A DNA stretch of 64,000 nucleotides, taken from the NCBI GenBank assembly GCA_018287875.1, contig JAGVVL010000009.1:1922001-1986000 (forward strand). Direction: 5' to 3'. Within the stretch, counting starts at the first letter, position 1; every line of letters begins with the position of its first letter. Positions 32,258-33,277 of the stretch are shown one piece after another. The stretch is from Nigrospora sphaerica (lineage: Eukaryota; Ascomycota; Sordariomycetes; Amphisphaeriales; Apiosporaceae). The notes under the pieces are model-generated. The model had not been told where the DNA came from, did no database searches, and was given only the letters and a program-made list of their open reading frames with translations. Made by a program: the position numbers and the translations under genes.

Positions 32258-33277
32258 ATGGCTCCCAAGATCGCTATCGTCTTCGTGAGTACACCTTCTG
32301 CTTCCCAATCCTACACCCATAGCGCAGTCATGCCCCGGCCGGTCTGATGCCGGGGTGACACGGCAGCGAACACTGGCGGCTCCCTGCATACCCACGACGG
32401 GCATGATGAGCTCGAGCCGCTCCCGCCGGAGCCTGTGCCTCCTTGGTCCCCACGTTTTCTCGAATGCTTGACTGACCTGCCCTCCTCCTTCCCACAGTAC
32501 TCCATGTACGGCCACATCCGCCAGATGGCCGAGGCCGAGAAGCGCGGCATCGAGAAGGCCGGCGGTACCGCCGACCTGTACCAGATCCCCGAGACGCTCC
32601 CGGCCGACGTCCTGCAGAAGATGGGCGCGCCCGGCCAGTCGAGCGACATCCCGCTGCTCGAGGACCCGGCCGTGCTCGAGCAGTACGACGGCTTCCTGAT
32701 GGGCATCCCCACGCGTTACGGCAACTTCCCGGCGCAGTGGAAGGTCTTCTGGGACAAGACGGGCAAGCAGTGGTCGACGGGCGGCTTCTTCGGCAAGCAC
32801 GCCGGCATCTTCGTCTCGACGGCCTCGCAGGGCGGCGGCCAGGAGTCGACGGCCATCGCCGCCATGAGCACCCTCGCCCACCAGGGCATCATCTACGTGC
32901 CCCTCGGCTACGCCAAGACCTTTGCCCAGCTCACCGACCTGACCGAGATCCACGGCGGCTCCGCCTGGGGCGCCGGCACCTTCGCCGGCCCCGACGGCTC
33001 CCGCCAGCCCTCGCCCAAGGAGCTCGAGGTCGCCGAGATCCAGGGCGGCTACTTCTACAGCGTCGTCGCCGCCGCCAAGAGCGGTTGACTACATGGAAGC
33101 AACGGTGACGCCCAGACGACCCAGAAGCAACCCGACGCGACCGAGAAAACCCCCAAGGCCGCCCCCGCCGCCCCGGCCGCCGCAAACACCGGAAACGACG
33201 ACTCCGCCCCTGTCCCCAAAAAGGGCAGCGGAGAGGGAGGCCCTTGCGGCCTGCCCAAGAAGTGTGTTATCCAGTAA
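32258..33277 (+). CDS. WrbA/Pst2-like NAD(P)H:quinone oxidoreductase (flavodoxin-like), with predicted readthrough extension
   Basis: Exons 32258-32284 and 32498 onward; the 213-nt intron runs GTGAGT...CCACAG. The normal product stops at TGA 33086-33088 and has 205 aa, the usual WrbA/Alt a 7-like length. FMN-binding flavodoxin features: [16 protein letters not shown] phosphate loop, [32 protein letters not shown], and the [14 protein letters not shown] segment. These enzymes reduce quinones by two electrons against oxidative stress. The stop is followed directly by CTA, and the same frame runs open for 62 more codons to TAA at 33275-33277. That tail has an Ala/Pro/Lys/Glu linker and ends [13 protein letters not shown], a CaaX box with a second Cys upstream. 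In the tail, 47 of 62 codons end in G or C. Readthrough would give about 268 aa. The start codon context is GTCACCATGG. Confidence 0.94.
33086..33091 (+). promoter_or_regulatory. Leaky stop context UGA-CUA (candidate programmed readthrough site)
   Basis: TGACTA stands exactly at the end of the 205-aa flavoprotein frame. UGA followed by CUA is the short context known to permit readthrough in fungi and animals, including dual-targeted metabolic enzymes. No intron with plausible length removes the stop: the only GT right before it (GTTGAC) would give introns of 16-44 nt to the nearest AG sites. Inference, not demonstrated. Confidence 0.7.

What the first reader, a model, noticed from the sequence alone, without database searches (positions are those of the whole stretch)
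32258..33277. Predicted stop-codon readthrough adds a CaaX lipid anchor to a soluble quinone reductase
Seen: the 205-aa WrbA/Pst2-like frame ends in TGA followed immediately by CTA. The same frame then runs 62 codons without a stop, 47 of them ending in G or C, encodes an Ala/Pro/Lys/Glu-rich linker, and ends [13 protein letters not shown] then TAA. Known: UGA-CUA is a short context that allows efficient readthrough in fungi and animals, used for example to add peroxisomal targeting signals to glycolytic enzymes. CaaX boxes with Gln in the last place are farnesyltransferase substrates, and a Cys upstream can be palmitoylated. Yeast relatives of this flavoprotein family (Pst2, Rfs1, Ycp4) are found at membranes. 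Inference: most enzyme is cytosolic, and a minor fraction made by readthrough is farnesylated and anchored at a membrane, where it could reduce ubiquinone or other lipid quinones. A readthrough-generated prenylation signal differs from the peroxisomal signals usually described.
Basis: partly seen in the sequence, partly recalled or inferred. Interest (0 to 1): 0.9.

Follow-up and report, generated by a model that had tools for sequence, protein, structure and literature searches.

The report
Leaky stop hides a lipid anchor
A fungal quinone-reductase gene carries, just behind a leaky type of stop codon, a tail ending in a membrane-anchor signal that related fungi also encode, so one gene probably makes both a soluble enzyme and a rarer membrane-bound one.

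Summary
A 205-aa WrbA/Pst2-type quinone reductase ends at TGA-CTA; the frame then stays open for 62 codons and ends CVIQ-TAA. The tail is a conserved coding element: 31 of 155 relatives returned end in CGLP-x-KC-a-a-[Q/L/M], and a profile of their tails, built without the window, hits this stretch alone (E 1.1e-7, next 1.2). Only one such gene was found in the genome. No candidate intron removing the stop has a donor above 3 of 6 consensus bases, against 5-6 for three resolved introns here. In the same genome phosphoglycerate kinase ends TGA-CT plus an extension ending PKL; four other enzymes checked do not show this. Near-identical relatives are annotated long or short, which suggests splicing elsewhere. 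I favour readthrough here and a splicing/readthrough mosaic across the class, as known for peroxisomal signals. Not shown: translation of the tail, prenylation, any relative's DNA. One readthrough prenylation signal was predicted before, in fly Syx17. New variant of a known kind.

The parts
32258..32284 (+). exon 1 of the quinone reductase (MAPKIAIVF)
32285..32497 (+). intron 1, donor GTGAGT, acceptor CAG
32498..33085 (+). exon 2, rest of the 205-aa WrbA/Pst2-type core
   Evidence: NCBIfam TIGR01755 188.3 bits, cut-off 132.5; PDB 5mp4, yeast Pst2, E 1e-73
33086..33088 (+). UGA stop of the short form, the inferred readthrough codon
   Evidence: a 96%-identical unnamed relative (P0002) also ends at this position
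33089..33091 (+). CTA, the 3' context that with UGA promotes readthrough in a fungus
   Evidence: PMC4207609
33089..33274 (+). 62-codon in-frame extension, Ala/Pro/Lys/Glu-rich linker plus anchor
   Evidence: tail-profile hit E 1.1e-7; alignment
33239..33262 (+). GPCGLPKK, conserved stretch with an invariant Cys (33245-33247) that could be palmitoylated
   Evidence: invariant G, C, G, L, P, K columns in 23 rows; palmitoylation is inference
33263..33274 (+). CVIQ, CaaX-type prenylation box
   Evidence: Cys invariant; X is Q, L or M in 31 of 31 tails, which were picked by the motif CGLP..KCxxx-end
33275..33277 (+). TAA stop of the long form

Best explanation
[quoted passage not shown] Most ribosomes stop at UGA and release the 205-aa soluble enzyme. 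A minority read the leaky UGA-CUA context and add 63 residues (one at the UGA and 62 of tail): a flexible linker and [12 protein letters not shown], which is prenylated on the CaaX Cys and possibly palmitoylated on the upstream Cys, anchoring a small pool at a membrane, perhaps the plasma membrane or eisosome, where it could reduce membrane quinones. The anchored form is old in the Sordariomycetes; other lineages probably reach it by splicing out the stop, whereas this lineage has no usable donor there and uses readthrough. Shown: the sequence, the conservation of the tail, the single copy found, the lack of a consensus donor. Inferred: readthrough, prenylation, membrane location, substrate.
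For: Tail profile of 31 orthologues hits only this frame (E 1.1e-7). GxCGLPxKC invariant in 23 aligned rows including the window, apart from the x positions. One homologue and one motif copy found in the genome. UGA-CUA promotes readthrough in U. maydis (PMC4207609); only 18 of 1616 TGA triplets in the window have CTA after them. 177 frame-keeping introns that would remove the stop use 53 donors, none above 3 of 6 matches to GTRAGT; three introns resolved in this genome have 6, 6 and 5. PGK of the same genome ends TGA-CTT-GCT then LAAGPPKL-stop, i.e. the known readthrough context before a tail whose end resembles a peroxisomal signal (that PKL resembles PTS1 is recalled). P0002, 96% identical, also stops after KSG. 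C. albicans Ycp4 ends in a CAAX box and the flavodoxin-like proteins were seen at the plasma membrane (PMC4556627).
Against: No transcript, ribosome or peptide data. No relative's DNA could be read, so conservation of TGA-CTA and synonymous bias are untested; P0002's DNA behind its stop is unseen. Tail-only search found nothing at E <= 0.001. No stable RNA structure 3' of the stop (z 0.10), so the case rests on the six-base context. Of five enzymes checked as in-genome controls only PGK shows the TGA-CT context; GAPDH and TPI end TAA, the second TIM-like gene TGA-TGT, ribulose-phosphate epimerase TGA-ATA. Relatives suggest that splicing is a common route to the long form. In the clade holding the window 13 of 14 labelled rows are annotated short, which also fits loss of the tail there.
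Confidence: 0.66

Rival explanations
1. Alternative splicing: a short or non-consensus intron removes the TGA, and the 205-aa form is intron retention, as I infer for Sordariales, Hypocreales and Colletotrichum.
For: Long relatives skip the stop at variable joints: among Fusarium rows ...FYQTVAN-SQAKAAP...FYQT-AAPEV...VQGD-SQAKAAP. C. fructicola (long, P0027) and a Colletotrichum sp. (short, P0131) are near-identical in the core. P0055, a 250-aa product on a 1058-nt contig and so probably cDNA, is long, next to the short P0084. 79 of 94 short forms end G-stop (42) or GA-stop (37) although position -3 from the end varies freely, as expected if the stop overlaps a donor such as GG/GTGAGT or G/GTGCGT (inference, no DNA seen).
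Against: Here the equivalent site reads G/GTTGAC, 2 of 6 consensus matches, and no donor in exon 2 exceeds 3 of 6. The tail starts 0-5 codons behind the TGA at a place that already aligns with relatives' tails, leaving no room for a separate intron. The scattered joints among close Fusarium rows also look like gene models forced round a stop.
Confidence: 0.17
2. Vestige: this lineage has given up the anchored form and the tail is unused 3' UTR that has not yet decayed.
For: Most labelled members of the window's clade are annotated short (13 of 14); linker poorly conserved; P0002 shares the stop, so the stop is not brand-new.
Against: 62 codons without a stop or visible frame break, best codon score in frame, both Cys and the whole GPCGLPxKC motif intact, and the stop is followed by the leaky CTA.
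Confidence: 0.11
3. A-to-I editing turns UGA into UGG in some stage, as stop-loss editing does in Sordariomycetes.
For: Stop-loss editing with peptide evidence is known in Sordaria macrospora for UAG (PMC6794485 passages).
Against: Fungal editing strongly prefers U at -1 and hits UAG and UAA (PMC11156358 abstract in listing); here the A follows G.
Confidence: 0.03
4. Assembly error: the true codon is sense and the gene simply encodes a 268-aa protein.
For: Many relatives are annotated as one continuous long protein.
Against: 94 of 155 relatives returned are short forms of 200-210 aa, including the 96%-identical P0002 that stops at the same place.
Confidence: 0.03

Closest known systems
Fungal PTS1 readthrough/splicing switch (PGK, GAPDH; Freitag 2012, cited in PMC4973966 and PMC9549241; Stiebler 2014, PMC4207609)
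   Same: Same logic: UGA-CU context, a low fraction of an enzyme gets a C-terminal targeting signal, and species reach it by readthrough or by alternative splicing in a mosaic (passages).
   Different: The signal here is a lipid anchor, not a peroxisomal import signal; the extension is 62 codons; readthrough has not been measured.
Ycp4/Pst2/Rfs1 flavodoxin-like proteins of yeasts
   Same: Same enzyme family; C. albicans Ycp4 has a CAAX-ended extension of about 90 aa (PMC4556627 passage); S. cerevisiae Pst2, Rfs1 and Ycp4 are listed as eisosome proteins (PMC5753163 passages).
   Different: Yeasts use separate genes (C. albicans has four) and one of them always carries the CAAX tail; here one gene with a stop in between.
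Fly Syx17 readthrough extension (Dunn 2013, PMC3840789)
   Same: A predicted farnesyltransferase signal in a readthrough extension (passage).
   Different: Different protein; in the passages seen only nuclear signals were tested; no fungal or splicing counterpart mentioned there.
Plant prenylation by transcript readthrough fusion (APSR1-ROP1, PMC12609287)
   Same: A CaaX gained by a longer product (passage).
   Different: Fusion of two neighbouring genes' transcripts, not translation past a stop.

Membership tests
WrbA/Pst2-type NAD(P)H:quinone reductase | match to the family model over nearly the whole core | tested here: met
   TIGR01755 188.3 bits (cut-off 132.5), residues 4-197; PDB 5mp4 Pst2 E 1e-73
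WrbA/Pst2-type NAD(P)H:quinone reductase | FMN-dependent quinone reduction | not testable with these tools
   no assay
CaaX protein | Cys four from the end, aliphatic a2, permitted X, conserved in relatives | tested here: met
   CVIQ here; 31 relatives CVVQ 18, CVIL 6, CTVQ 3, CLIQ, CVIM, CVVL, CEIM 1 each; relatives were picked by the motif
CaaX protein | prenylated in the cell | not testable with these tools
   Prenyltrans-family genes are present (6 matches over cut-off); which of them is the farnesyltransferase was not determined
functional translational readthrough | leaky stop context | tested here: met
   TGA-CTA, compared with PMC4207609
functional translational readthrough | extension conserved as protein | tested here: met
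   tail profile E 1.1e-7; in relatives the tail is joined without a stop, so this shows a functional tail, not readthrough as such
functional translational readthrough | stop context conserved in relatives' DNA | not testable with these tools
   no fungal relative's DNA found
functional translational readthrough | splicing excluded | tested here: inconclusive
   no consensus donor, no RNA data
functional translational readthrough | translation past the stop measured | not testable with these tools
   needs ribosome profiling, peptides or a reporter

The most novel reading that the evidence does not exclude
A stop codon that in relatives sits inside the 5' splice site of a retained intron has, in this lineage, lost its intron and become a readthrough stop (GGT-TGA-CTA). 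One gene thus keeps delivering both a cytosolic and a prenylated, membrane-bound quinone reductase, a job that yeasts split between duplicate genes (Pst2 and Ycp4). It would be the first lipid anchor with evolutionary support to be dispensed by translational readthrough, and its dose could follow termination fidelity and oxidative state.
Probability: 0.45. Interest if true: 0.8.

Novelty: new variant of a known kind. Interest (0 to 1): 0.68.

Why it matters
Readthrough with a proven targeting role in fungi has been described for peroxisomal signals; Stiebler et al. speculate about other functions still to be found (PMC4207609 abstract). A conserved CaaX tail behind a leaky stop would widen readthrough to membrane anchoring of an antioxidant enzyme and give a directly testable case of the same isoform being made by splicing, by readthrough or by gene duplication in different fungi. 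It would also mean that the membrane form is left out of many annotated genomes: 94 of the 155 relatives returned are short-form records, though how many of those carry the tail in their DNA is unknown.

Tried and rejected
Tail-region protein search: 28 candidates, none at E <= 0.001. Search for relatives' DNA: a tail pattern in genome contigs gave 13 bacterial stretches and in viral contigs 1; tblastn of the core against the 20 loci then held found only the window's own gene in L005 and L006, so I take those 14 as chance matches; a core-protein scan of viral contigs confirmed none. RNA structure behind the stop: nothing above shuffles. First join of the exons was one base off, so its core translation and core GC-by-position are wrong and are not used; the tail figures are unaffected; the right join is. 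The first genome pattern was too arbitrary to use. A fourth intron, in a prenyltransferase, could not be resolved (best donor 4 of 6). The tree uses 31 long rows, 29 of 94 short rows (those I had named) and the window; 65 short rows and 30 rows of other lengths were left out; it has many weak forks (24 of 57 inner branches open), and one Xylariales member, Microdochium trichocladiopsis, falls outside the window's clade, so it is used for interleaving of labels only. The labels are still more clustered than shuffles (14 changes against a mean of 20.4; 1 of 500 as low). Selenocysteine was not considered further because Stiebler et al. state that fungi lack the machinery.

Literature: searches readthrough+CaaX (25 papers, 20 listed), stop codon readthrough+farnesyl (16, all listed), translational readthrough+prenylation (22, 15 listed), a five-term search (218, 12 listed), readthrough in fungi (37, 12 listed); one search returned nothing. 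No report of this tail or of a tested readthrough CaaX was seen in these listings or in the passages of the nine papers opened; subscription papers such as Freitag 2012 are not held and were seen only through citing papers.

Full report
What is there. The gene lies on the + strand at 32258-33277. Exon 1 (32258-32284) and exon 2 (from 32498), separated by a 213-nt intron with donor GTGAGT and acceptor CAG, encode a 205-aa protein ending AAAKSG. It matches the WrbA family model (TIGR01755, 188.3 bits, cut-off 132.5), the Pfam models FMN_red and Flavodoxin_1 above their cut-offs and, best among solved structures, yeast Pst2 (5mp4, E 1e-73). The stop is TGA at 33086-33088, followed by CTA. The frame then runs 62 codons, 47 ending in G or C, to TAA at 33275-33277, and ends [13 protein letters not shown]. 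The tail matches no Pfam family.

Is the tail real? An open frame of 62 codons in DNA of 66% GC is not remarkable. Homology is. Two protein searches (6763 and 5164 matches, best 120 listed each) returned 155 different proteins. Of these, 94 are 200-210 aa long, 31 are 241-266 aa and end in CGLP-x-KC followed by three residues, and 30 are other proteins, mostly longer ones. The 31 tails end CVVQ (18), CVIL (6), CTVQ (3), CLIQ, CVIM, CVVL and CEIM (1 each). They were picked by the motif, so its presence in all is by choice; the point is that the window's frame, which lies behind a stop, matches them. A profile built from these tails without the window hits 33089-33274 on + at E = 1.1e-7 among 2075 frames of the window; the next is 1.2. 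In the alignment of the window with 22 long relatives, G257, C259, G260, L261, P262, K264 and C265 are invariant while the linker is not. Searching with the tail alone found nothing at E <= 0.001, as a variable linker with a 12-residue end would give.

Who has it. Long forms occur in Colletotrichum (Glomerellales), Fusarium and relatives (Hypocreales), Podospora and relatives (Sordariales) and one Xylariaceae record; all of those looked up belong to the Sordariomycetes (the order of records not looked up is recalled). The window's protein falls beside an unnamed 96%-identical protein (P0002) and Apiospora and Whalleya (Xylariomycetidae). On a tree of 61 core sequences (31 long, 29 of the 94 short, the window) the long and short labels change at least 14 times, 5 of them forced by well-supported branches; they are nevertheless more clustered than shuffled labels (mean 20.4; 1 of 500 as low). 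C. fructicola (long) and a Colletotrichum sp. (short) are almost identical in the core, and P0055 (long, on a 1058-nt contig, so probably cDNA) is sister to P0084 (short). I read this as one gene with two products, of which each annotation shows one.

How the stop is passed elsewhere (inferred). Long relatives join core and tail at different places, for example three different joints among closely related Fusarium records, either real alternative donors or gene models forced round a stop. Of 94 short forms, 79 end in Gly-stop (42) or Gly-Ala-stop (37), although position -3 from the end is the most variable of the last twelve. A stop lying in a donor, GG/GTGAGT read as GGG-TGA or G/GTGCGTGA read as GGT-GCG-TGA, would explain that; common descent explains part of it too. 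I could not read any relative's DNA, so this stays an inference.

How it is passed here. In the window the same place reads AGC-GGT-TGA-CTA. Among GT/GC-AG introns of 38-400 nt that would remove the stop and keep the frame there are 177 combinations from 53 donors; none has more than 3 of 6 matches to GTRAGT. Three introns resolved in this genome have 6, 5 and 6 (this gene, PGK, GAPDH). The tail aligns with relatives' tails from its first codons on, leaving no room for an intron behind the stop. UGA followed by CU(A) promotes readthrough in Ustilago maydis and human cells (PMC4207609: abstract, part 1 of 5 of its main section, and passages). In the same genome, phosphoglycerate kinase ends TGA-CTT and continues LAAGPPKL-stop, which looks like the peroxisomal readthrough described for fungal PGK (PMC9549241 and PMC4973966 passages); that PKL resembles a PTS1 is recalled. 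Four further genes checked do not show the context: GAPDH and TPI end in TAA, a second TIM-like gene in TGA-TGT and ribulose-phosphate epimerase in TGA-ATA. There is no notable RNA structure behind the stop (z 0.10). A-to-I editing, common in this class for UAG and UAA, is disfavoured by the G before the A (PMC11156358, abstract in listing).

What it does. C. albicans Ycp4 of the same family has a C-terminal extension ending in a CAAX box; the flavodoxin-like proteins were seen at the plasma membrane and are proposed to reduce ubiquinone (PMC4556627 passages). Pst2, Rfs1 and Ycp4 of budding yeast are listed as eisosome proteins (PMC5753163 passages). By analogy the long form here would be a prenylated, membrane-bound quinone reductase. 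Only one homologue of the core was found in this genome at E <= 0.001 and only one copy of the tail motif, so I found no paralogue that could supply the anchored form. The genome has Prenyltrans-family genes; the farnesyltransferase itself was not singled out. The final residue varies between Q, M and L among relatives, so farnesyl and geranylgeranyl may alternate (inference from recalled CaaX rules).

Verdict. The tail as a conserved functional element: very likely. Readthrough as its route in this fungus: likely (about two in three), with splicing as the main rival and a decaying vestige next. Novelty: the mechanism and the mosaic with splicing are known for peroxisomal signals; a predicted farnesyl signal in a fly readthrough extension is in print (PMC3840789 passage); a conserved readthrough-dispensed lipid anchor was not seen in searches, whose listings are partial.

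Noticed in passing
G000 contigs C19 (836 kb), C20 (71 kb), C21 (105 kb); loci L022, L023, L025-L032, L037-L039, L049-L051: Bacterial-looking contigs inside the fungal assembly: GC 0.38-0.39 in three 10-kb samples against 0.586 in the window, densely coding, with ankyrin-repeat proteins and bacterial housekeeping genes (resemblance recalled); matching PGK and GAPDH hits on C19/C21 and C19/C20 suggest overlapping ends. PGK and TIM matches are broken into shifted pieces there. Could be an endosymbiont or a contaminant.
   Followed up: partly
L021 (G000:C5, PGK, match 3458191-3458925): Phosphoglycerate kinase ends TGA-CTT-GCT-GCC and continues LAAGPPKL-stop, a candidate readthrough peroxisomal form in the same genome.
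   Followed up: partly
P0001, P0003-P0014 and similar rows: Proteins of 388-467 aa, many from Symbiodinium and other dinoflagellates or algae, score at the top of both searches although only about three quarters of the query is covered; probably two flavodoxin-like domains in tandem (domain count not checked).
   Followed up: no
P0039, P0079, P0132: In three Chaetomiaceae-type records the quinone reductase core is fused in annotation to a PF09811 domain protein, probably a merged neighbouring gene (family name of the fungi recalled).
   Followed up: no
P0127, P0070: Two longer records (262 and 288 aa) have other C-termini: P0127 runs to GPCGLP and then diverges, P0070 lacks the motif; probably faulty gene models.
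   Followed up: no
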